DNA of 64,000 bases from Inonotus obliquus (Eukaryota; Basidiomycota; Agaricomycetes; Hymenochaetales; Hymenochaetaceae), in the NCBI GenBank assembly GCA_032164295.1, contig JAJHTX010000001.1, positions 2,108,001 to 2,172,000 of the forward strand. Direction: 5' to 3'. This document shows positions 22,239 through 61,059 of the stretch, piece after piece (the stretch's first letter is position 1; each line of letters begins with the position of its first letter). The notes under the pieces are model-generated. The model had not been told where the DNA came from, searched no databases, and worked only from the letters and a program-made list of their open reading frames with translations. A program made the translations under genes and the position numbers.

Positions 22239-25200
22239 TCACGACTCTTCAGTCTGACCTAAGGGTGGCAGTGGTTCTGCAATTGACTCCAGTTGTGAGA
22301 AGGGAGGCAGAGGACTGTGCTTAACACCGTCTCCTGTTTGGGGTGGCAACGGCTACAAAGGGAGTTTAAGTTTACATCAATATGAACTCAAGAATATAAA
22401 CTCACGACTTTGAACATGGGATTTATGGCAGAGTGTGGTGCAATTGCCGGGCTTGGCGGCTGCGCCTGTATTTGTCCATATTGCCCATATTCGTAGGGAC
22501 TGCCTGGAGTGGGAGCACGGAAGTGTTGATGTGGTACCGGTGGAATAGGAGATGGCAACGTTATGAAGGGATGTCGATTTATCATCTGTGTATGTTGCTG
22601 TTGCGGACTGGAAAGGGATAGGGAATGTAGTGGCAGGGGTGAGCTTGCTTCAGACATCGATGAGCGAGCAGCATCGTAAGAAGACATAGACGCCCTCGAA
22701 TCGAAATCGCTGACAAGCTGTTGCTCAAACGATGGTGAGTTAGACGAGCGAGCCGAAGCAGAGAAGTCATCGCCAAATGAAGTGCGAAGGGAGGATGCAG
22801 ACTGCATACGCGTAATCCCAAATAGACTTGGTCGGTGTCGTAGCCTCGCTGCCACTGGATCGCTCTCGACAGTTGCGAAAGATATGACAGATAGTCTGCT
22901 AACACTTTGCAAGTCAGACGAAGACATCGAATGATCATCGTCGAGATCACGTCGTCGTGCTTTTGTCCGGTGTTCGGCTTCACGGAAATTGTCGTAATCC
23001 GATGGATTAGGGGGTTCATTTAGACCGCGGAACCGTCCTCCGGCAGCATTGATGGTTGCAGATGACGATGATGCCTGGGCGATATTAGATCGCTGCTTAG
23101 ACTTCGGCTTCTGGACCCCAAGTAATTGGGTTGCATTAGCCGAATCCCAGTCAAAGTCAGAGCCGTGCTTCTGCTTGATCATCTGGTTACGCTTTTGCAT
23201 GACAGCTCTAGCCTGTTCACGACTGCGTTTCTCAGCCAGAGCTCGCCGAGCCTTTTCTGCCTCAAGCGCAATGCGATCTGCCTCCTTTTTGCGGGTCTTA
23301 GCATCCATAGGCGCTGGGGGTGGCTCGACCACAATTGGCTCGCCAATTGATGACATGTCCGAAGCAACGTGACTATCCGTACTTGATGTCTGCGTACGCT
23401 TAAGTGAAGGCGTCGATGATGAGGATGCAATGTTCTCGTCCACAGGGGGTAGAACGTGCTGTTGCCCTTTCTCCGCATTCCCGAACATGAGGCGTCCCAA
23501 TCGTCCGGGTCGTTTGAACAAATGGTTCAATTTAGAGTTACTCTGCGGCTGTTGGGTGGAAGGCACCGGCATTGGCGGTTGTTCCGGTACAGGAATATTC
23601 TTAGGTGGTTCTGGACCCGATGGAGATACCTCCATAGCTTCATGTAAATGTCGTTCAGCGTTTTGTGGAGATGGAGGCGAAACATCCATGGCTTCCCCAT
23701 ACTGCGCCTGCGCGTTACCATCGACCCAAGTGCCTTGAATATGATTCGCTCCCGTGAATACAGAGCTCGGAGCAGCTGAACAGTGCGACGACACGCTGCT
23801 TTCATTTTGGATCTGCAGCGCCTCGAGCAAATCCGGAGACGGCGCTGTGAATCCTGTAGTGCCATACTGTTCCGCTATTTGAGAGAAGAACGGCTTCCTG
23901 TGCGGATGAAGATTGCCGTTAAATGCTGGTTTATTGCTTGCTGGAGAATGCGAATGCGAAGGAGGGACACTGCGAGGGGAAACAGAAGTCATGCTCGGTG
24001 TTGGCTTGACCGCCAAAAACTCTGTGCTGATCTGCAAAGGGACTTGTGGACCAGGCGGAATGTTGCCCGGCATTGTCTCCGTAATGTATGGATGCTCCAA
24101 GCAGTCCCGACATGTCAATCGAGCGTCAGGATCGTACTTGAGCAAATCCGATATGCATTGGATTAAGTTGCGCGGAATGTTACGGTCAAACAGGGAGTGG
24201 AATGGCACGGGCTTGAGCTGAGGGTATAAGTAGCTCATGAGGACTCAATAGATCAACCAAGATTGTTAAACATACCTTTGGAAACTGATACCCAACAGCA
24301 CGAGCCATCTTAATGCCCCGCACCCACTTTCCTCCTCCGTTGGGAACACCGCGCGAGTCTACTCCATACTCATCCGAAGGATCGCCTAGAATTTCGCAAA
24401 TACGCGCGACTTGATCGATCTCAGTTCCTCCAGGAAATAAGGGCTTCAGATTGACGAGCTCCGCCATGATAGTCCCGAGAGCCCACGTATCCACAGGATT
24501 TGAATAATCACGGCTCCGCAGTAATACTTCAGGTGCACGATACCAGCGTGTGGAAACGTATTCCGTGTATGGAGGTTTACTCCTCGTCTCCCGCGCCAGA
24601 CCGAAATCTGCAAGCTTAACAATGACGACAACATCCTTCTCTGGTGGCGCATTAGGTGCCGCCATCGGTGAAACATTTCGGTAATCGAATAGGCCGGTCG
24701 TTGTGACGAGCAGGTTTTCAGGTTTCATATCACGGTGAAAATAGCCGTGAGCGTGAATGTGATGAAGTCCAGACACGACCTGTCGAAAGATGCACGAAAC
24801 GAGACCGCCGGCGAGAGGACGCCCCTTTCTCGATTTTATCAACTGGTATAGGTTGCCCTCCATAGACTCGAAAACGAAGTAGAGCTCCTTAGTAGTGGGG
24901 AGCAGAAAAAAATCGTATAACGGGATAATATTAGGGTGAAATGGTATGGCACGCAGCGACTAAATGCAAGCAATATGCTAGTCAAAAGATCTGACATGGG
25001 CATGATGTCGAATATCATACGCACCTCCAACTCTTTCAATTTCTTGCATTCATCCCAACCTCCTTCCCACCGTTTTTTCATTCGTTTCAGCGCGACCAAT
25101 CTCTTCCCCGTCCACTCTGGTCTCGCACCAGCGCCACACTGCATAGGGGATAGCGGCGTGTTCGGTGGGAGCGCCGAATGCCAGTCGACGAGCCAGACGG

Positions 25201-26232: not shown

Positions 26233-27594
26233 TCAGAACGGCACTTCATCAAACAACTTCGACACACTTTCGCCATAGTGGCTCCGTCGGATAACCTCCC
26301 CAAGCACAACACCAACGTCTATCACCTCAATCTTGGAGCACGCCGCCTGGTGCGCCTCTTGAGGGATCGTGTTGGTCACAATCAGCTTCTCAAGCGTGCT
26401 TTCCTCCAGGTTCTTGAGCGCATTCCCGCTCAAAATCCCGTGTGTCACAATCGCAATTACCTTGGTCGCGCCTGCTTCAGTCAGGTGCTTTGCCGCAAGC
26501 ACCAATGTCCCACACGTATCTGCCATATCGTCCACCAAGATCGCCGTCTTGCCTTTAACATGTCCCACGAGAATCATCCGCGATACTTCGTTCGCCTTCT
26601 TGCGCTCCTTGTGGAATAACGCGAAATCCACGCCCAACCGATCGGCAATCGATGTCGCACTGCGAGAGATGTACAAAAATGAGCAAGCGTTGCGCGCTGA
26701 TGTAAACCAGGCGGTCTAGATCCGCACCGTTTCGCTCCACCCGCATCCGGACTAACGATTACGACATCGTTCAAGTCGTAATGCGTTTTGATGTGTAGAA
26801 TGGCAGATGGCTCTGCATATAGCTTAGTTGTTGCCGCACGGATACATGCGTGTGATTTTCAGCCTAAACGCGTATAACCTGACAGCACTCACACTGCGAG
26901 CGAGAGCATTGTCAATTTCACTTCGCCATGTTTCAGCACGAACGCGACTCACTTGTCTACGGGCACATCAAAGAATCCCTGTATTTGAGACGCATGCAAG
27001 TCCATTGTCTGCCCGTAGGTGGTGTCCACGGAAACTCGGTTAAATCGCCATTCAACCGAAAGGAATGCTGGTGACGTACAATGAGATGGTCACAACCACT
27101 CTTCTGCAACATGTTCGCGACGAGCTTTGCCGTAATCGGCGCACGGCTCTTGTCCTTCTTATCTTGCCGCGCGTACGGGAATAACGGCAACACCGCGGTG
27201 ATGCGCTTCGCACTCGCGATTTTGCATGCATGGATCATGATACACAGCTCGATGAGTGATCCATTCACTTCGCCATACCCAGTGTTTACTATGTATACAT
27301 CGTGCTCGCGAACAGACTCCGCGATACGCACGGAAGTCTCGCCGATTCCGTTACGGGTTATTTCTGCCTTGGAAACAGGCATTCCGAGCCTGCATGAGCA
27401 GGTTAAAACGGCGCGTGATGAGCACCGAAGCGGTTGTACGGTAACAATAAGAATTAAGCATCGCACCGACGCGCAATAATTTCCGCGAGTTCAGGATGAC
27501 TTGTCCCTGTGGGTATTAGTATGAGCTTATGTTCTACTAAACAGAGAGGTGCTTATGTACCCGAGAAAATTTTGAGTCCACCAGCAGACAGCAT
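26233..27594 (-). CDS. PRS: Ribose-phosphate pyrophosphokinase (PRPP synthetase)
   Basis: Makes 5-phosphoribosyl-1-diphosphate from ribose 5-phosphate and ATP, the precursor of purines, pyrimidines, histidine, tryptophan and NAD. ATG at 27594 gives [20 protein letters not shown]; then [52 protein letters not shown] (ATP-binding flexible region), [51 protein letters not shown], and the PRPP loop [14 protein letters not shown]. About 320 residues, the normal family length. At least six introns. The stretch 26823-26952 cannot be removed as one intron without losing frame. It reads correctly if split into two canonical introns of 59 and 70 nt around a single-nucleotide exon at 26893, which completes the Asn codon of NLYAEP (see findings). 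Introns elsewhere join in frame, and I regard the gene as functional. Confidence 0.92.
26893..26893 (-). other. Proposed one-nucleotide exon of PRPP synthetase
   Basis: On the minus strand the context is CTCGCAG|T|GTGAGTG: a consensus acceptor directly followed, after one T, by a consensus donor. The upstream exon ends GTAGACAA before GTGAGT (donor at 26951-26952) and the downstream exon starts CTATATGCAGAG after AACTAAG (acceptor at 26823-26824). Joining AA + T + CTA gives Asp-Asn-Leu-Tyr-Ala-Glu-Pro, the conserved PRPP synthetase motif. The two introns are 26894-26952 (59 nt) and 26823-26892 (70 nt). Confidence 0.7.
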
Positions 27595-31088: not shown

Positions 31089-34000
31089 ATGTCGAACTTT
31101 GAATTCACAGACAAAGCTCAGCAGTCCATCGCGGCTGCTATCCAACTCACAAAGGACCACGCAAACGCTCAAGTTAATCCCGTTCACTTAGCCTTCGTCC
31201 TGCTAAACGAGGGAGCTGGCGAGGGCGCGGGTCAGCATTCTCTTTTTGCTTCCGTCATTCAGAAAGTCGGTGGTGAACCTGTATGTCCCTTCCATCGTTC
31301 TTTCTACCCTTCATATCGTACTCACCTATTTGTTTTTAGAATCTCGTCAACCGAGCGCTCCAGAAGCATATTGTCCGTCTTCCAACCCAGGAGCCTCCTC
31401 CGGATGACATCTCCTTATCTTCCGCCACCCTCAAAGTTCTTCGTGAAGCTCAGTCTATTCAGAAGAATATGCATGATGCCTACATTGCGCAGGATCACAT
31501 CCTTCTTGGTCTAATCAAAGACTCTACAATTTCGTCTATCCTCAAGGAATGCTCCTTGAACGAAAATACCATCAAAACCGCGATCCAACAAATTCGGGGA
31601 GATCGCCGCGTCGAGAGCAGACAAGCAGAACAAGGGTTTGATGCTCTACAAAAGTATGCCGTTGATCTGACGGCCCTCGCTGAAGAAGGGAAGCTCGATC
31701 CCGTCATTGGTCGGGATAACGAAATTCGCCGAGCGATTCGCATTCTTTGCCGAAGGTATGCTGCAAGTGTTCTACGACGAGTATCTTTCACGATGCTGAT
31801 CAGTTTCTTCTGCTAGAACAAAGAATAATCCAGTTCTGATTGGAGAGCCTGGTGTTGGAAAGACTGCAATAGCTGAGGGCTTGGCCCAGCGCATCGTTAA
31901 GCGCGATGTCCCGGCCTCGCTTTTCTGCCGACTATTCAGTCTAGATATGGGTGCATTGATGGCAGGTGCAAAGTACAAGGGCGAGTATGAGGAGCGTATA
32001 AAGTCCGTCTTGAATGAGGTCGAGCAGGCTGCAGAAGAAGGTCCTGGCGTTATACTCTTCATTGACGAGCTTCACCTTATCATGGCTGGAAGCGGCAGCG
32101 AAAGTGCTGGAATGGATGCCGGTGAGTTATCTAGATTTTTATTACATTCCAGGATACTGTGGCTAATATCAATTCAGCGAATCTCTTCAAACCTCTATTG
32201 GCTCGCGGGAAGCTGCGTTGTATCGGTGCGACCACACTCGCAGAATACCGGAAGTACATCGAGAAAGATGCCGCGCTCGAGCGGCGATTTGCTCAAGTCA
32301 TCGTCAACGAGCCCTCCGTACCCGAAACAATCTCGATTCTGCGTGGAATTCGCGAGAAATACGAAGTACACCATGGTGTTAGAATTCATGATGGCGCCCT
32401 TATCAGCGCCGCACAGCTAGCACACCGCTACCTTACTTCAAGAAGACTCCCAGATGCGGCTATTGACCTTGTTGATGAGGCATGCGCAAGGTAAGCCTTT
32501 TCCATTAATATCCTTATTCCATGTTCTGACTTGTTTATTTCAAGCGTCCGCGTTACTCGCGAAACTGCTCCCGAAGAGATTGATAAACTTGAACGGCGGA
32601 AGCTCGAACTTGAAGTCGAGATACATGCTCTTGAGCGCGAAAAGGATGAAGCAAGCAAGGAACGTCTCGTAACGGCACGCAAGGCCATTGCCGATGTGGA
32701 GGAAAAACTTGCTCCTTTGAAGGCTCAGTACGAAAACGAGAAGAAGCGAGGTGACGAGATTAATGAGCTTCGCCGGAGGATTGACGAGTTGAAGGCCAAG
32801 GCCGACGATGCAGAGCGAAGGTAAGATGGTCTATGCAGATTGTTGGTAGCGAACTATTCACTGACCTACTGTCTCTACAGATACGATCTCGCGACTGCGT
32901 CCGACCTTCGGTATTATGCTCTTCCAGACCTAACGCAGCGCCTCCACCAGCTTGAGGCTAAGAAGGCGGAGGAAGACCCTAGAGCTGGTGGTGGAAGCGA
33001 CACTGTGACCTCAGAACAGATCGCTGAGATCGTGGCTCGCTGGACCTCCATCCCTGTGACAAGGCTTATGGCAACAGAGAAGGAGAAGCTTCTCAGAGTA
33101 AGTGAGACTCGACAATGATTGACAGAAGCATATATTGATGTATCGATATTCTGTAGATGGAGAAGATCCTATCGCAAGAAGTCGTGGGCCAGCCCGAGGC
33201 AGTCAAGGCAGTGGCAAACGCAATCAGACTCTCAAGGAGTGGACTAGCCAACGCTCAGCGTCCAATCGCAAGCTTCCTCTTTGCTGGTCCCTCGGGTACT
33301 GGCAAGACCCTATTGAGCAAGACACTTGCCACGATCTTGTTCGACTCAAAGGATGCGATGATTCGCATTGACGCATCTGAGTATTCTGAAAAGCACTCGA
33401 TCTCTCGTCTCATTGGTGCTCCGCCGGGCTACGTTGGCCATGATGCAGGAGGACAACTCACGGAATACATCCGTCGCAAGCCTTACTCTATTGTTCTGAT
33501 TGACGAAATCGAAAAGGCTTCGCGCGAGTTCGTTACGCTATTCCTGCAAGTCCTTGACGACGGACGCCTGACTGATGGTCAAGGTCGTGTTGTTGACTTC
33601 CGGAACACGGTCATCATTATGACTTCGAACCTCGGTGCATCATATCTTCAGGATATGGGCGATGGTCCTGTCAGACCCGATACGCGTGCACTTGTCATGG
33701 GTGCCATACAGGGACACTTCCCACCCGAGTTCATCAACCGAATTGACGAAGTTGTCATTTTCCGTTCGCTTTCCCGCCGTAACATCACCAAGATTGTGGA
33801 TATTCGTCTCAGGGAAGTCCAGGAACGTCTTAGCGAAAGAAAGATGTTCGTTAACGTTTCCCCGGAGGCGAAGGAGTACCTCGCTTCGGTTGGGTATTCA
33901 CCTGTTTATGGTGCCAGGCCACTCAACCGCGCAATCCAGCAAGAACTACTCAATCCTCTCTCTATCCTCATTCTCGAGAATGCTGTGCGTGATGGTGAGA

Positions 34001-34125
34001 CCATTAACGTGCAATTCGACGGACCGCATAACCGTCTGGTTATCGCGCCCAATCATGAGAGAATCGGACAGAGCATGGACATCGACTGGGACGATGCTGA
34101 TATCGAGATTGAAGAGATGGACTGA
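31089..34125 (+). CDS. HSP104: Hsp104/ClpB-type protein disaggregase
   Basis: Hexameric AAA+ chaperone that threads proteins out of aggregates with Hsp70 and Hsp40, in the cytosol. N-domain: [20 protein letters not shown] and [14 protein letters not shown]. First nucleotide-binding domain: [19 protein letters not shown] (Walker A), [17 protein letters not shown] (pore-loop Tyr), [12 protein letters not shown] (Walker B). The middle-domain coiled coil runs at about 32.55-33.0 kb ([20 protein letters not shown]). Second domain: [67 protein letters not shown], and the sensor region [19 protein letters not shown]. The C-terminus is acidic, as in cytosolic Hsp104. About 900 residues in seven exons; every junction I checked is in frame. 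Start at 31089 gives the standard family N-terminus. Confidence 0.96.
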
Positions 34126-40920: not shown

Positions 40921-41279
40921 ACCGGTTAGTCCAAGAGCTTAACGGCTCGCTGCCACGGCGGGGTGCGGGCAGGAAACGACTTGAAACAGTCACCGTCGTC
41001 TGTTTGACGGGCGGCAATAAAGCGCTGACATAAGACAGGCAGGCCAATGACCTATACCTAACGGAATCGTGTCCTTCCCTTGCATGTAAAGTGTGATGTT
41101 CAGCCAGACTATAATCGGCGTTGCAGATACATGTAGAACTATTTGCACAGACAAGCAGGTACAATTAAACATTGCATTGCCAATGCTAGCTATCCTTCCC
41201 AAGATAATCGATCCCCCTCAACCACTTTGCCAAACATTCTTCACATCATTGTCACCATCTATCCCCAGAAGAAGAGAAC
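40921..41279. other. Intergenic
   Basis: Upstream of regulator A and downstream of importin alpha. A minus-strand open frame crosses the regulator A start in another frame; it is not supported as a gene. Confidence 0.4.
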
Positions 41280-43164
41280 CTATTGACCAAAGCTGAAACC
41301 ACCTTGTGGGGCAGCAACGTCTGAGTGGAACTGCAAACGACTCTTAGCAACTTTCGTGCAAATAAACAATTGTTACGTACAGCAAACTGGCCAGATGCAT
41401 CAACAGCCGCGGGCGCGATGTTCGTATCTTCCTCCTCGTCGGCGAAATACTTGTCCATGATATTGAATGCCTTCTTGTAGATTTCCAAATTATCGTGCTG
41501 CTGGAGGTTGTGGATCATATACATGCCACCGCACTCCTCAACATATTGCGCATATTGATTGGTCGCGCCCGCACCAGCAGCCTGTTTGTCCATCTCCCCG
41601 ACCTTCAAAATATTATCCAAACCATCGAGCGCCACCTGGATGATTTTGTTGTCCATAGTTTGGAGCAAGTCACACAGAGGTTTGATGCATCCTTGGCTGA
41701 CGAGGTAACGGATTTGTGCTGGCTCCTGTAGACCCCCTGACGTAGCGTTAGAAATCGCCCAGCAGGCCTCCTTCCTTGTCTTGAAATCGGCGTTCTGAAG
41801 GATGTTGATAAGGGGAGGAATTATGTTCGCATCTACTACTGCCTGAATCTGATGCGGCGAGCCGGCGGTGATGTTGGATATCGTCCAGCAAGCCTCCTTA
41901 CGAATGCCATCCTTAGGAGAGGATAGAAGAGATAACAAAGCTGGGAGGGCACCGGAAGCAATTACGACTTGGGTCTGCAAATCGTCGCCTGTCACAATGT
42001 TTCCGACCGAACGCAATGCAGGAGTTTGAACGGAAGTCGAGCTATGCATAAGGAGATCAACGAGTCTCCTGCAGACACCCGATTCGATAACAGCCTGGAT
42101 CTTGTCATTCGAACCATCTGATAGATACGAGATTGCCCAGCAGGCGTCGATGAGTACCTCGTCATCCATTGAATAGATGAGCTTGGTGAGTACAGTCAAA
42201 GCAGGCGAGATCTATCAGAATTGTAATCCTCTTCAGATTATCCGCTGAATGGCAATTCGAGATGACTCACCAATTCCCAATCCGGCTGAGGATTCTTGCC
42301 CCTGCAGAAGTTGCTGAGTGTCCAAGTTGCATTCCGCAGCATACTGATCTTGTGATTTTCGCTCAGGAGAGCGAGAAGAGGACGGAGAGCACCCTGCTGA
42401 AGGACATAATCTCGGCACTGGGGGCTGTCACCTGCAATGTTTCCTAATGCCCAGACAGCTTGTTCTCGAACGTCCAGGACGGGAGAGGACAATAGGTTGA
42501 TGAATTCCGGAACCGCACCAGCTTTGATCACAACTTGTGTATGGTCCGCAGTACCAGATGCGATATTTGTTAGCGCCCATGCGGCTTCAAACTACCAATA
42601 TACCACATTAGCGTCCCATCCTTATCCTGCAGACATCATTCCTACCTGGAGCATAGAGTGGTTGCCGCGGAGGAACTCGACAAATCGCGGTACAACACCA
42701 CATTCAATGACTTTTTCGATCGGCGGATTCTTCTCTTTTGAAAGAAGCTTGCGGAATTTCGTGGTAGCGTCAAGCTGGCGGTCTGGATCATCTGAGAATA
42801 CGCCAGCCACTAGCTCTTCAGCGAGCTGCATGATTGAGCCACATGGTCAGATTTCCAAACGCATATACTGATAATATAGGGTGACCTACAGGAGCCTCCC
42901 AGTTGCTTGACCCGGCCTCGTCATCAGAATCAGGCGTGGGGGCAGGAAGGAAGTTCCTTCTCTTCGCTATGTTTTCTTCCCTCTTTTGACGTCTGATTTC
43001 AACCTGCTGTTCCTCCCGGCGGCGGCGTAGATCGTCCTGTTTGAACCCGCCCTTGTTCTTGAAATCTTTTAGAAAAAATACGCTTGGCATCAGTACGTAG
43101 ATAGATGAATAACAGATAGCAAAGACTGACTAGCTCTGCGATGGTCCAAAGTTCGGGACTCCAT
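41280..43164 (-). CDS. SRP1: Importin subunit alpha (karyopherin alpha)
   Basis: Adaptor that binds nuclear localisation signals and docks cargo to importin beta. ATG at 43164 ([11 protein letters not shown]) is separated by an intron from the IBB domain ([20 protein letters not shown], then [12 protein letters not shown]). About ten armadillo repeats follow, with the NLS-binding Trp/Asn ladder visible in [65 protein letters not shown] and [14 protein letters not shown]. The acidic [10 protein letters not shown] region and a final GGFSFGQ complete a protein of about 530 residues. Six exons. The start sits 152 bp from the divergent LSM5 start, so the two genes share a promoter region. Confidence 0.95.
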
Positions 43165-43797: not shown

Positions 43798-44507
43798 AGT
43801 GATGCTTCATTCTGATCATCATTTCCGTCTTCGGACACCGTGATACTTTAGCACTGAGTAGAAGCCACCTAATACCTAATATCCCTCTAAATCGGATATA
43901 TTCACCACATTGTCCTCGGGTACTCGGGTAGCTGCCTAACTTCGACATCTCTGAGCAAAAAGGAGTAGAACGTATGATGATTGCTATATGCTATATAATT
44001 GATACATGACGTCTCGACTCTACCAAGAAATACTGTGCTGGTAACTCACCTGGCATCCGTCTTTCCGCGCCACGAGCCACAATCTGTCAAAAGGACACTT
44101 AATCCTCACTTTTTATTGGGAGACGTATCGTAGTCTCAGATGACTTCTCCAAATAGACTCTTGACAGACAGAACAAGAGATTGAGAGTGTTCCGGCCATA
44201 CCGAACAAGATGCGTTACATTATAAGGATAATCATCATATCAGTTCGGTAAAAGGCATCGAATATCATGAAAATCACGTAAGAGTTTGGTACAATCTATT
44301 TAGTAACAAAATGTCAAGTCTTGAAGTGCATGGCCGAACTGACGAAGAATCTAAGCTCCGAAGGCTGAAATTTGAAGCGGAGCCAGAAAACACGCGACAC
44401 AATTTCGATCACGGGATCGGAAAACCCTCACAGAGGCAAGTCAAGTCCAGCAAGCAGAATACTTTACAGTGTCCATACCATACCACTCCTTACAAAACCC
44501 AGTAATC
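43798..44507. other. Intergenic between LSM5 and bS16m
   Basis: No gene recognised. A 64-codon open frame at 44311-44505 (+) ends just before the bS16m ATG and has charged, unstructured composition; it could be chance or part of the 5' leader. Confidence 0.4.
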
Positions 44508-44938
44508 ATGGTCGTCCGCATACGCTTCTCCATGCACGGCCCGCGAAATAACAAGTTCTTCCACATCGTCGCTATGAACGCCAAACAAGGACGAGACGCC
44601 AAACCTATCGAAACACTAGGCGTCTACAGACATAAAATCGACCCAGCTAAAGACCGAACACAAAAGTCGGTAGAATGGAGTGTTGCACGAATAAAGTATT
44701 GGCTTAATGTTGGTGCGCAACCGAGTAAATCAGCGGTTAGGCTTTTTACGCAGGTACGTACATTCGCTGGTGTTTCGATATTTCGAAAGATAGGACTGAG
44801 AATTGAATTTGTCTGTTTAGGGTGGGATTATACCTCCAGATTCGAAGTATCACACTCCGGAGGAGAGACTACGAGAAGCTCAAAGAAGAAAAGCTAAAGC
44901 CGAGGACGAGGAAACTCACGAAATCATCGACTCATAAA
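44508..44938 (+). CDS. MRPS16: Mitochondrial small ribosomal subunit protein bS16m
   Basis: Component of the mitochondrial small ribosomal subunit, binding 12S/15S rRNA. Starts MVVRIRFSMHGPRNNKFFHI, then PIETLGVYRHKIDPAKDRTQ, the standard S16 core (ERLGYY-like segment is LGVYRHK), VEWSVARIKYWLNVGAQPS, and after one intron (GTACGT...TTTAG, about 44753-44820) GGIIPPDSKYHTPEERLREA. About 120 residues. The N-terminus has no separate presequence, which is normal for S16, whose own first residues can target it. Confidence 0.93.
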
Positions 44939-47955: not shown

Positions 47956-50900
47956 TCACTCGCCACCACTTAATGGATTGGCTCGTTGTCTGTCTTTCGT
48001 CTTCATTGCAAACCGATGGAATGTAGTGATTGCACGCTTCACTTTGTCGAATTCACTGCTGTTAATGGACCTGTCCGCGGAACCTTCAGTTGTCGGGCTT
48101 AAAGAGGACGAATTAACTCCCTCACCTGGTCACATCGTTCAATAGTTGTTGTTTCGCAGGACCGAACGATGCGGGCATCGGAACACTATTCACTGCATCG
48201 GGAAGCCAGCTCAGAAGCTGCTCTGGCCACAGTACCGCCAGCATACGGAATATCGTCACGACAAGGGACACGGTCGTCTCCGGGAAGTCGTTGATGAGCC
48301 CTCCGAGAAGCTTCGCAGTCATCTCTATTCCTTCACCGGTAATAACCTGTCGAATCGCAGCTGCATACCCTGGGAACTTCGGGGGTGGGTTCTTCAGTGA
48401 CGGATCCAAAGAATCATGTGTGACAATCCCTCGCAGAAGGTCCAGAGCAGCATAAATGATATCACTATGGATGAGCTCGAGTGACACGATCGCAATGCGG
48501 AAGGCCGTCGGAAAAGCCGGAGACTCAATGAAGGCATCAGGTCGCTTTTCGAAGAGTTGGAGGAGCATCTGTAAGTAATCCTCGATGACTTCGTGCGAAT
48601 GTTAGTAACGGTACCACGGATGAAGAAAAATCACTTACCGTCTGGAATATCACCGATAGCTGTATGTTGCAATAGTGAAACCACCTTTGATGTCGAGCGT
48701 TCGTATACATCCTTGACTGCCGATAGCATATCTGTACCGTCTTCATCTCCAAAATGAGAAATCGCTTTACCAGCGATCCAGACGTAGCTAGCAAATCCGG
48801 TTGCCTCGAAAGCAATAGACATCCGGCTCACAATTGAAGGAATAATTGGTAACGCTGCTGGACCGAAAAACCTCAGTCCACGACGCAACACGCGTGTTGA
48901 TCTCTCCGCAATGTCATATTGTATCCCGAATTTCGAGAGAAGAGCGTCAATTATGGACCAAGACTCTTCACAAGTGCCACGGCACGCGGAGGGTAAGTCC
49001 TCTCCAAAAGTGTCCACGACCGCCAACATGGCTTCGAGATTCTCGAGGCCATCTAGGTGAGACAATCAGACACGATCCAGAACAAATCAGAACTTATTGA
49101 ACTGACCTGTGATGGTCTGCAAATCTGCCTTTGTTAGAGGGGCGCTCTTGACCATCAGCGCATGGATCTTGCTTAGAGTGTCCGCCGCGAATGATTTAAG
49201 TGACGTAGCAGCTTGCTCCATGGGCATGGCAGAGATGACGTGAGCAACGGCCTCATAGATACGTAGTCTGTCGTCCTGAACCAGTTTGGTTTCCAACGAT
49301 GTCAAGAATGAATGAAGCTGAGGAAGGAATGGAATCATGTCCTGTATAGTATTTGTAAGTAATGTTCCATTCAAGGTTTCGCTGCAATTCACCTTCTTGC
49401 AATCAAGACAAAGATAGACCATTGCCTGACTCGCCGCTGCTGCCGCTTCACTATCAACGTCTTGAAATCCGCTAGAGATGAATTGCAGTTGGAACGGAAT
49501 ATAGTTCGGATGGCGACTGGTCCACTCGGTATACCTAGACATGACCATAATCGCAGAATATTTGATTCTTGGGTGGTCTGGTAGAAGAGGCATTATATCC
49601 ATAATCTTTGGGATGACAGTGTCATCTGTGAGATCTATCTCAGCACCCATAGAACGCAACGAAAATAACGGGGCTTCGATCTCTTGCCAGGACACCGCCT
49701 TTCCGGTGTTCGCTTCGGCCAACGCATGAGTTAAAGTGTTCAAAACTTCCGTCAGGCAACTCTCCGCTCCCAGAACGTAGCAACAGTCCTTGAGTGTGTC
49801 CCCCATAATGTGCCTGAATGATCTGAAATCATCCGCCTCCTGCGGAGGCATCTTGCTAGGGTCCTCTGGGAAGTAAAGATGCTTGATCATGACGCGCATC
49901 AAGGATCTGTACGCATCGAGGAATAATGGTGATACGGATGGCTTCTTCCCAATGCTTAGTGCGAGGCGCATCCAAAACGGGAAAGTTATAGGAACAATGT
50001 CAAGATCGTGATAAGCAGAACATTCGCCTATAGCCTCGACAATCGGGAAGAAAGTCTCGGGATGCTGAAGAATAAGCATTCGATATACTTCTCCAGCTTC
50101 GCTGAAGATCTTCGCGAGTCCCTTCACATTCTCGGAGTCATCCTCGACCATCGATATCTTTGGCTTGAGCTGCACCAATTTTGGTACAATGACCTGGATT
50201 ACGGACATATTGTCGTCAACCTCCTGTGTCTCGTGGATAACTTCGCAGAGAACGTCAACGGCGACGTCGAAGAGCTCTTCCGACTCTAATGCCTCAAAAG
50301 CAAAACCTAGGAGCGATGTTTCAGCCACAATGGACGGAAGAATCTCCCCTACAACGATCCAGCTTCGCAGACAACGGAAAATCTGATTTTGTACAGCAGT
50401 AGTGACGCCTAAGGGACAATAACGGTTATTCGATTCATAGTATGCATATACGGACAGACACATGCCTGGTGCTGTCAAGTACATCGCTAAAAGATTGGCT
50501 ACCGCCTGTGCATTTGCAGTGAGGAGTTTTGCAGATCCATTCTCATATTCGTCAGGCTAACAGGACTGGCATTTAGTGTTAAGAGGGAGACGATGCATTC
50601 ATTACGTACTGTTACTGGTATTTTAGTGTTGCCTGTAATCTCCTCAGGTAAAACGGTCAAGAACTCCAGCAAAGTTGGCACTGTTGCTGGATTCTGACCG
50701 AATTTGTCGATCACCGACTGAACTGCGGTCTCTTGCCAAGCAGGAGACTGAAGAGCGAGTCCAGCTAGAGCGAGACAGAGTTGAAGGATGATAGTTTTTG
50801 GACTTCCGGTCAGAGACTCGAGTGCGGTCAATAGGGAGTCTCGGAGCGATGGAATGAATGAGGGATCCAGTTGGTGCAGATCGTATGTAACCTTAGAACG

Positions 50901-51216
50901 ATGATGAGAAAATTGCGAGATGGTAGAGATACATGGATGATAGGACGTACCTTGGCCCGAAAGGTCTGAGCGGCAAAGATTTTTGCTAGTAGAGGCATCT
51001 CTGGGTTGAGGAGCAACGTATTGCACGTTGCCCAAGCCTCATTCTGAGGGCGATCGAATCAGTCGTTGTTTCGTGGACGCGACCATGGGCGAAATTATTT
51101 ACGGAATGCTGGAACTCCTGAAGCCAATTATTTGCATTCATAAACGAAGCCTTATCCGACGTCGGTTGGCCCAAGGCCCCCAAAGCAGAAAGAACGGCCT
51201 GGACGTTGTTTGCCAT
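47956..51216 (-). CDS. MTR10: Nuclear import receptor Mtr10/transportin-3
   Basis: Importin-beta-family karyopherin that imports SR-type RNA-binding proteins and, in yeast, affects tRNA traffic. ATG at 51216: MANNVQAVLSALGALGQPTS, then LQEFQHSNEAWATCNTLLLN and IFAAQTFRAKVTYDLHQL (the Ran-binding N-terminal HEATs with the family's ...A...FAAQTLR motif). Alpha-helical HEAT repeats continue over about 900 residues, including FRCLRSWIVVGEILPSIVAE, EVYRMLILQHPETFFPIVEA, FPFWMRLALSIGKKPSVSPL, YSAIMVMSRYTEWTSRHPNY and QTIVTIF-type C-terminal helices (PETTVSLVVTIFRMLAVLWP). The last exon is small: after an intron, SINSSEFDKVKRAITTFHRF with the stop at 47956. About ten introns. The gene is head to head with YTH1, with 146 bp between the start codons. 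Confidence 0.9.
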
Positions 51217-59267: not shown

Positions 59268-60783
59268 TTAGCCACGTAAACTAATACTCAAACACTTTCT
59301 TAACGCGCTGAACGATCGAGAAGATGCATCCGCTTCCTTGACTTTGCTCCCGTTGAAAAAGGGTTCCACGCAAGTCTTTGCAATAAGTTCGAATAGATCC
59401 TCGAGGATCCACCTGAGTCTGCTTCCTGTCATTTGAATCGCAGGCTCCGAGTTGAATTCTAACAACTTCACCAAGAATCGTCCAGCGGTAGTGCCAGGTG
59501 GAGCGTGGCTTACTAGAAAGTCTACGCCGTATAGTTCAAATGCATTCGGCAGGGGCTTTGAAGAAATACGCATGAGATAACGTGGGTCCGAGGCTTTAGG
59601 AGAAAGGCGAGGTGTACTGGTATACGTACTTGAAAGTGAACTGGCATCTGCAGAACCGCCTTGAAAGTTTCGGTCAGAGCATCTACCATTTGACTCATGA
59701 TCGAAGCTACGTCTTCATCGGAAAATTGTGGCTCCCGGGCATGATCATTACCGGATAAAATGCTACATCCAACAAGCTCATGCAGCAAACGGACATTCGC
59801 TTCGCCCTCGGATCCTTGGAGGCAAGTGTTGGTCAGATGCGGGCGGAGATCAAGATCTCCTAATACATCAGAAGCTCGGGATGGCTCCGTGTATTTCTCC
59901 GAGGAGAAAAGAGCAAGAACTCGAGGATACAGATAAACAGAAAGCGCTCCTGATGCGATGCAGTAAACGCGAAGATGGAACTGGAACACAATTGTGAGCC
60001 GGTCTTGAACTTCAAAGAAATACTAACACGGACCTTTCGCCCCTCCAGCCCTTTTTTCATTTGAGCTGCGCCTTCCGGACTAGCGTACGCTTGGAACGGA
60101 TCCATGAGGACAGGTTCGGCCAGGTATTCCTGGACAAGAACAATCAGTCTACGGATGGAAATAGAAATAAAGGAAAGGACCTGAATGACGAAGTGACGAA
60201 GCTGAGATAGTAAGACGTTGGTATCTTCCCCTGCAGCAGATTCCGTGTCGCTCTCGTCGGAATCGTGTTCCTCAAATTCCTCAAAGATGCGTTGCAGGGC
60301 CTCTTTGGATTTGAAGAGTCGGATTCCCATTCCTCGATCTGCCATCCCTGGTTTCAATATCCACCACTTGTCCGGGTACTGCTCAATCTCATTGGCTAGA
60401 TCCCAGAGCTCGTCACTCCATAGTTCATCTAATTCATCGGCGTATGAAATTTCAATGTCCCATGTTCGTGGTACATACTGAATGAGGGAGGAATCAGGAT
60501 ACTTTGTCGTATAGGCGCGGATACAACGATGGAGAAAGTGTTTCCGGATGAGAGCTTTTCTGATAATGTACGAAGACGAAAGGACAGAAGCAGGTCTTGA
60601 TAATGTGAGTTCATGGTCGATGGAGTCGTACGTCGCCCACTGGAGGAGAGGTTTCCCATCAGAGGCTGAAGGCGATGGTATGAATGTTGGAATTGAGCGT
60701 TGAGAAAGTTTTTCAATCGCTCTGTGGACGAGTGATCCCGTGAGAGGAGCTCCGGGCCAGTCTGCAAAGATATCGAGTTCCAT
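59268..60783 (-). CDS. Tubulin-tyrosine ligase family protein (TTL-like)
   Basis: ATP-grasp enzyme of the TTL superfamily, members of which add tyrosine or glutamate to tubulin tails; the fungal members (yeast Pby1 type) are associated with P-bodies and their substrate is not settled. From ATG at 60783: MELDIFADWPGAPLTGSLVH, LQWATYDSIDHELTLSRPAS, YIIRKALIRKHFLHRCIRAY, ATP-grasp motifs WWILKPGMADRGMGIRLF and FVIQEYLAEPVLM, GRKFHLRVYCIASGALSVYL, and the metal-binding end PNAFELYGVDFLV and VKLLEFNSEPAIQMTG. Ends LRKCLSISLRG. About 430 residues, three introns. An in-frame ATG at 60831 could add 16 residues. Its start is 276 bp from the divergent MMM1 start. Confidence 0.88.
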
Positions 60784-61059
60784 CACTAGTATAAGAGTTA
60801 GAGGGCAACTTTGAGTTGCAGACCAGGTCATCAGAATTTTCGTTTCAGCAGCGGACTGATCTACGGCGATCGACGCGCACGAGCGGCGTTACGGACGGAA
60901 ACTGGCACGCGCGTCGTGAACATGTTATTTATTGACACTCGCCATGACCACCCACGGACGCGTATGACAATTTTTCCAAGTCTTACGTTCCGAGTCCTAC
61001 GTTGTAGAGAGCCGCTACACGCAAAATAATCGTTCCTACCAGCAGTTTATGTCATATTC

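What the first reader, a model, noticed from the sequence alone, without database searches (positions are those of the whole stretch)
26823..26952. A single-nucleotide exon in the PRPP synthetase gene
Removing this stretch as one intron (GTGAGT...CTAAG) gives GAC AA + CTA, which breaks the frame and leads to a stop soon after. Inside it, on the minus strand, CTCGCAG|T|GTGAGT appears. If that T (26893) is an exon, the two introns are 59 and 70 nt, both normal for this genome, each with a GTGAGT donor and an AG acceptor, and the protein reads VDNLYAEP, the family-invariant motif. The single-intron reading would be 130 nt, unusually long here. One-base exons are extremely rare; a case in a plant APC gene has been reported.
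Basis: partly seen in the sequence, partly recalled or inferred. Interest (0 to 1): 0.9.

Follow-up and report, generated by a model that had tools for sequence, protein, structure and literature searches.

The report
One-letter exon in a mushroom enzyme
A wood-rotting fungus appears to build the mRNA of an essential enzyme, PRPP synthetase, by splicing in an exon of one single nucleotide, and protein records suggest that many mushroom-forming fungi do the same while their genome annotations get this spot wrong.

Summary
Positions 26952-26823 (minus strand) are 130 nt that break the PRPP synthetase frame if removed as one intron. Split around the T at 26893 they give two GTGAGT...AG introns (59 and 70 nt) and an intact 320-aa protein reading VDNLYAEP. 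Of 116 canonical in-frame splicing solutions only this one gives that motif.

The strongest evidence is in relatives. Among the 120 best-listed homologues, 68 of 69 proteins from short, transcript-like contigs read VDN here, but only 5 of 51 annotated on named genomes do. Every internal indel of those 51 lies at this junction. The annotation errors decode as a donor directly after GACAA: in all 15 models with one residue added after VDK, that residue is C, W or Y. Four models expose a second donor after AAY. A Sanghuangporus vaninii model translates part of our intron B.

I conclude that the single-nucleotide exon is real and probably conserved across much of Agaricomycetes. One-nucleotide exons are known in plant APC11 and VPS55 and Fusarium CYP621A, so this is a new member of a known kind. 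My searches listed no earlier basidiomycete case. RNA of this species and DNA of relatives were not available.

The parts
26233..27594 (-). PRPP synthetase gene, coding region from ATG (27594) to TGA (26235-26233): 7 coding exons, 6 introns, 320 aa
   Evidence: Spliced translation; Pfam Pribosyltran_N 164.6 bits and Pribosyl_synth 138.6 bits; 91-93% identity to Sanghuangporus and Phellopilus proteins; ribose-phosphate pyrophosphokinase 1 structures at E about 1e-127
26953..27008 (-). Exon upstream of intron A, 56 nt, ends ...GTA GAC AA (phase 2)
   Evidence: Sequence and frame
26894..26952 (-). Intron A, 59 nt, GTGAGT...GCAG; candidate branch site TTGAC 18-19 nt from the 3' end
   Evidence: in a noisy heuristic set donor at the 97th and acceptor at the 16th percentile
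26893..26893 (-). Single-nucleotide exon T: third base of the Asn codon (AA|T) of VDNLYAEP
   Evidence: Only canonical solution giving the motif; junction pattern in relatives
26823..26892 (-). Intron B, 70 nt, GTGAGT...TAAG, phase 0; no YTNAY branch consensus (CTGAA or ATCAC are candidates)
   Evidence: from 26863 it reads, after AA, KLKITRM, identical to the insert of the S. vaninii model P0004
26728..26822 (-). Exon downstream of intron B, 95 nt, begins CTA TAT GCA GAG (LYAE)

Best explanation
The T at 26893 is a constitutive single-nucleotide exon of the nuclear PRPP synthetase gene. It lies between a phase-2 intron (A, 59 nt) and a phase-0 intron (B, 70 nt) and supplies the third base of the Asn codon of the conserved VDNLYAEP motif. 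Mechanism: the two short introns are most likely recognised one at a time by intron definition and removed in sequence. U1 on donor B (AGT|GTGAGT) would lie on the acceptor AG of intron A, so the two sites should not be usable at once; either order leaves a normal substrate for the second step. Skipping the T or retaining either intron gives an early stop, so only full removal makes enzyme. The same arrangement is inferred to be conserved across much of Agaricomycetes and to be mis-modelled by gene predictors. Shown: sequence, frame, uniqueness of the solution, protein pattern in relatives. Inferred: splicing in this species, order of splicing, DNA of relatives.
For: Geometry and frame exact. 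Unique among 116 canonical in-frame solutions. Chance of such a split site in 130 nt 0.0023 or less. Transcript-like homologues read VDN in 68 of 69, genome-annotated ones in 5 of 51 (Fisher p = 2.8e-26). All internal indels of those 51 lie at residues 145-158, none at the gene's other intron junctions. In 15 of 15 models with one extra residue after VDK it is C, W or Y, the only residues that TGN or TAN from a GTGN or GTAN donor can encode. VDNVSD (2), VDNVS (1) and VDNVG (1) can be read as the donor after AAY. S. vaninii KLKITRM equals our intron B translation. PRPS1 structures align as pvdnlyaep, and the paralogue in this genome is uninterrupted there and reads VDN with codon AAT.
Against: No RNA of this species and no DNA of relatives could be examined (searches found none; those collections are viral and prokaryotic, so none was to be expected). 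Five named genome proteins read VDN normally (P0011, P0014, P0017, P0072, P0075). Acceptor A scores low (16th percentile), donor B has T at -1, acceptor B is AAG, intron B lacks a YTNAY site. Several insert types (VDNLYYS, FGYS, RGYYS, VDNWSMLNIRPQ and others) were not decoded. AGNGTRAGT alone is common.
Confidence: 0.93

Rival explanations
1. A single 130-nt intron with a boundary shifted by one base (non-canonical), giving AAG = Lys: VDKLYAEP. Many public gene models read this way.
For: 26 of 103 named proteins read VDK directly before LYAEP or LFAEP, and one more VDK before CYAEP.
Against: None of 86 transcript-like proteins has Lys there (85 Asn, 1 Ser). Both neighbouring bases are G, so a one-base shift can only give AAG, and the intron would lack GT or AG.
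Confidence: 0.03
2. A single canonical intron from the alternative donor GTAGAC (26960) to the same acceptor (138 nt), deleting VDN in frame: FFDVP-LYAEP.
For: Canonical, in frame and stop-free; 42 of 103 named models lack VDN (two of the three searches used VDN-less queries and favour them; 7 of 51 alone).
Against: None of 86 transcript-like proteins lacks this three-residue segment. V and D are invariant in the 69; PRPS1 structures have VDN. A GTGAGT donor lies 8 nt downstream.
Confidence: 0.02
3. A base missing from this assembly at the donor, or a true frameshift, so that AGTGTGAGT inside the intron is coincidence.
For: Only one assembly was seen; AGNGTRAGT occurs 8 times in the window.
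Against: The rest of the gene is intact. 98 of 103 named genome proteins deviate at the same junction. VDKC, VDKW and VDKY models imply GACAAGT without an extra base in other genomes.
Confidence: 0.01
4. A nested spliceosomal twin intron (stwintron), in which an internal intron interrupts a splice signal of an external one.
For: Two adjoining introns in a fungus with sequential removal likely (stwintron papers seen as a listing with abstract starts only).
Against: A nested scheme removes one contiguous stretch, so it could only leave G (Lys) at the codon, not T. All four splice sites are complete before splicing.
Confidence: 0.01

Closest known systems
CYP621A one-nucleotide exon, Fusarium (PMC12940212)
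   Same: Fungal nuclear gene; one-base exon between two short GT-AG introns (139 nt in all in F. graminearum); supplies one codon base inside a conserved motif; public models wrong there; supported by RNA reads
   Different: Ascomycete genus, P450 of unknown function, exon G as middle codon base (AGGGT). Here a basidiomycete, a primary-metabolism enzyme, exon T as third codon base, inferred across much of a class; no RNA reads seen here
APC11 single-nucleotide exon, Arabidopsis and land plants (PMC4674806, PMC8831610)
   Same: Constitutive one-base exon; conserved across a large clade; missed by annotation; sequential removal of the two introns proposed by the authors
   Different: Plant; exon base A after a longer upstream intron (position 333 of 422); tested with GFP constructs, which is not done here
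VPS55 1-nt microexon, plants (PMC8831610)
   Same: Conserved 1-nt microexon with a GTRAGT donor, absent from reference annotations
   Different: Has retained-intron isoforms in some plants; no isoform evidence here
Stwintrons (spliceosomal twin introns) of fungi
   Same: Two adjoining U2 introns removed by consecutive reactions in fungi
   Different: No splice signal is interrupted here, and one base stays in the mRNA

Membership tests
Single-nucleotide exon | One genomic base flanked by AG (upstream acceptor) and GT (downstream donor) | tested here: met
   CTCGCAG|T|GTGAGT at 26893; the only AG[TC]GT in the 130 nt
Single-nucleotide exon | Omission breaks the frame; inclusion restores a conserved motif | tested here: met
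   motif conservation
Single-nucleotide exon | Mature mRNA of the same species contains the base joined to both neighbours | not testable with these tools
   No reads available. In relatives 85 of 86 transcript-like proteins read VDN
Single-nucleotide exon | Same arrangement in the DNA of related species | tested here: inconclusive
   Only protein models were available; they point to it strongly, but no DNA of relatives was seen
Stwintron | Internal intron interrupts donor, branch or acceptor of an external intron | tested here: not met
   All four splice sites are complete in the genomic sequence
PRPP synthetase (ribose-phosphate diphosphokinase) | Pribosyltran_N and Pribosyl_synth domains, full length | tested here: met
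   Pfam above cut-offs; ribose-phosphate pyrophosphokinase 1 structures, E about 1e-127 over residues 6-319

The most novel reading that the evidence does not exclude
The one-base exon has been kept across Agaricomycetes because it works as a splicing checkpoint: the two introns cannot be recognised at once, every incomplete product stops early, and the fraction fully spliced sets the supply of PRPP synthetase, possibly in response to growth or nucleotide state.
Probability: 0.1. Interest if true: 0.85.

Novelty: new member of a known kind. Interest (0 to 1): 0.7.

Why it matters
One-nucleotide exons mark the lower limit of what the spliceosome can define, and few are reported: nuclear cases that I saw are APC11, VPS55 and CYP621A. 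This one lies in a primary-metabolism enzyme and appears to be shared by much of a class of fungi. That would give dozens of natural replicates and tractable laboratory species in which to ask how such an exon is spliced, in which order, and how it arose. It also means that most named Agaricomycete PRPP synthetase records seen here (98 of 103) are probably wrong beside a conserved motif: VDN deleted, Asn turned into Lys, or intron translated. It offers a ready test of annotation pipelines.

Tried and rejected
Relatives' DNA: the search for related loci in viral contigs gave two loci at 42% identity.

Splice-site matrices: a first ORF-pair heuristic took false introns inside coding exons. A stricter set of 58 chosen from 237 candidates is still noisy and serves only as weak support. 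On it donor A is strong (97th percentile), acceptor A weak (16th), donor and acceptor B ordinary (53rd, 57th), and the branch site of B below average (21st).

Nested twin-intron reading: rejected because it would leave G, not T. A GC-AG alternative with T at 26887 (AG|T|GC) gives the same protein but has a poor donor (GCTGTC) and was set aside. Tandem intron duplication as origin: introns A and B share CGCGTTnnnGCTGAAA, but 24 of 1000 shuffles score as high, so it is a hint only.

Rows and biases: the Sinocyclocheilus protein P0134 (VDN; a fish, from memory) was left out of the named counts. Each protein search listed only the best 120 of 7992, 6343 and 7993 hits, clustered at 90% identity. 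Searches used VDN-less queries and favour VDN-less hits; the fair comparison is alone (5 of 51 against 68 of 69). I assigned named or unnamed by hand from the listings; unnamed means a jgi or lgn source without an organism name. P0014 and P0017 have lgn sources besides their names and were counted as named. Some named species appear twice. The indel control covers the 120 only; several later proteins (for example P0128, P0130, P0139, P0143, P0152, P0181) have lengths that imply differences elsewhere too, which I did not look into.

Full report
What is there. The minus strand of 27594-26233 codes for a ribose-phosphate diphosphokinase (PRPP synthetase). Spliced with six GT-AG introns it gives 320 aa without a stop, with Pribosyltran_N and Pribosyl_synth above their Pfam cut-offs and ribose-phosphate pyrophosphokinase 1 structures (human PRPS1, from memory) as solved relatives. 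The window lies in a 36.07-Mb, 30-contig genome (G000:C1:2108001-2172000). Its best named protein relatives are Sanghuangporus and Phellopilus (91-93%), so the organism is probably a Hymenochaetales fungus (order of Sanghuangporus). A second PRPP synthetase on G000:C2 is uninterrupted at the site and reads IPVDNLYTEP with Asn codon AAT.

The observation. 26952-26823 is 130 nt, GTGAGT...CTAAG. Upstream reads GTA GAC AA, downstream CTA TAT GCA GAG. Direct joining frameshifts and stops after [19 protein letters not shown]. Retaining A, or both introns, stops immediately; retaining B stops 22 codons after VDN. The T at 26893 is flanked by GCAG and GTGAGT, making introns of 59 and 70 nt; the gene's other introns are 54, 77, 71 and 68 nt. 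I enumerated the GT-AG solutions with introns of at least 40 nt across the two exons: 6 one-intron and 110 two-intron solutions are in frame and stop-free. Scored against the transcript-like relative P0001, the one-base exon is best (244; next 233) and the only one with VDNLYAEP. In 200,000 random 130-nt stretches of this genome 0.23% hold AG[TC]GTRNGT and 0.09% AG[TC]GTRAGT with both halves at least 45 nt. The bare motif AGNGTRAGT is not rare (8 in the window against 3.5 expected).

Relatives: the main evidence. I split the 120 listed homologues into 69 from unnamed contigs (longest contig under 3 kb in each) and 51 named ones. A contig of about 1.1 kb coding 320 aa of a gene that here has six introns is most likely a transcript; this is inference. 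At the junction the unnamed read VDN in 68 of 69 and VDS in 1; the named read VDN in 5 of 51 (Fisher p = 2.8e-26). In an alignment of all 120 with the query, every internal gap or insertion of the named proteins falls at residues 145-158 and none at the other intron junctions; the unnamed have no internal indel. Residue 147 deviates from Asn in 42 of 51 named; six further positions nearly invariant in the unnamed, outside 145-147, deviate in only 4 to 6 named. So predictors handle the other introns of this gene and fail at this one.

What the failures say about DNA (103 named proteins from the three searches, P0134 left out). 5 read VDN. 42 lack VDN, which fits an in-frame join from the GTNGAY codons; in our gene that is the solution FFDVP-LYAEP. 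26 read VDK directly before LYAEP or LFAEP: one base too many placed on the G of the donor or acceptor. I think this comes from RNA-guided models, but that is inference. 15 have VDK plus one residue, and it is C (9), W (4) or Y (2) in all 15. If a predictor ran four bases past the donor in GTGN-GT or GTAN-GT, the extra codon is TGN or TAN and can only be C, W or Y; a random codon would do so in 5 of 61 cases, about 5e-17 for all 15. This places a donor GTRN-GT directly after GACAA in those genomes, one base out of frame with CTNTWY. The remaining 15 carry other changes.

Four models can be read as exposing the second donor: VDNVSD (Lyophyllum, Tricholomella), VDNVS (Rhizopogon) and VDNVG...FQ (a Moniliophthora roreri record, 25 residues of apparent intron). 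Each reads AAY followed by GTN and then a codon that may be AGY or is GGN. Our own third-best alternative is VDNVSA, the same kind of error. Two other VDN inserts (VDNLYYS, VDNWSMLNIRPQ) and several further inserts I could not decode. S. vaninii (P0004) has VDK-LKITRM-SRSK-LYAEP; our intron B from 26863 reads KLKITRM after AA, so a homologous intron B is there.

Breadth. Deviating records include Hymenochaetales (Sanghuangporus), Auriculariales (Exidia), Sistotremastrales, Hysterangiales, and genera that I place from memory in Agaricales, Polyporales, Russulales, Boletales, Atheliales and Jaapiales. I did not sample outside Agaricomycetes, so the age of the exon is open.

How it probably works. 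Two short introns, each with its own donor and acceptor, are removed by intron definition. One base between acceptor A and donor B leaves no room for both to be bound, so removal should be sequential, in either order. [quoted passage not shown] For this gene it is inference. Weak points: acceptor A scores low, donor B has T at -1, acceptor B is AAG, and intron B has no YTNAY site.

Known kinds. One-base exons are reported for Arabidopsis APC11 (PMC4674806, passages), plant APC11 and VPS55 (PMC8831610, passages) and Fusarium CYP621A (PMC12940212, parts 1 and 2 of 3 read), whose authors call it the first for a fungal gene. Mitochondrial cases differ: group II introns in Ophiostoma (PMC12308204, passages) and placozoan cox1 (PMC5436844, listing only). 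Longer micro-exons in a basidiomycete are mentioned for Phanerochaete P450 genes (PMC12940212; PMC1184071, listing only). Searches for single-nucleotide exon, single nucleotide exon, one-nucleotide exon, 1-nt exon, and microexon or micro-exon with fungi and 1 nt, basidiomycete, Agaricomycetes or PRPP synthetase listed no basidiomycete nuclear single-nucleotide exon. The library is open-access only. Hence: new member of a known kind, notable for its gene and its inferred breadth.

Limits. No RNA of this species, no DNA of relatives, protein records clustered and capped at 120 per search, and two of three protein searches biased towards VDN-less hits.

Noticed in passing
L017 4432-5496 (G000:C2:4207432-4208496): Second PRPP synthetase paralogue, uninterrupted at the site, reading IPVDNLYTEP with Asn codon AAT
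   Followed up: partly
window 26823-26952: Introns A and B share CGCGTTnnnGCTGAAA (24 of 1000 shuffles score as high), a hint that one intron may be a copy of the other
   Followed up: partly
window 26845-26863 (minus strand): Part of intron B (GCTGAAAATCACACGCATG) has the same amino-acid reading in the S. vaninii gene model P0004; it may hold the branch site
   Followed up: partly
protein records P0001-P0190: 98 of 103 named Agaricomycete PRPP synthetase records deviate from VDN at this junction, probably gene-model errors
   Followed up: yes
window 3205-60888: Neighbouring genes by Pfam: VPS13 (ORFs between 3205 and 10453, +), protein kinase (24189-24959, -), Clp_N/AAA/ClpB_D2 ATPase (31340-34122, +), Arm-repeat protein (41255-42211, -), ribosomal S16 (44376-44894, +), transportin-3/importin-13-like (49090-51038, -), tubulin-tyrosine ligase family (59525-60888, -)
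   Followed up: no
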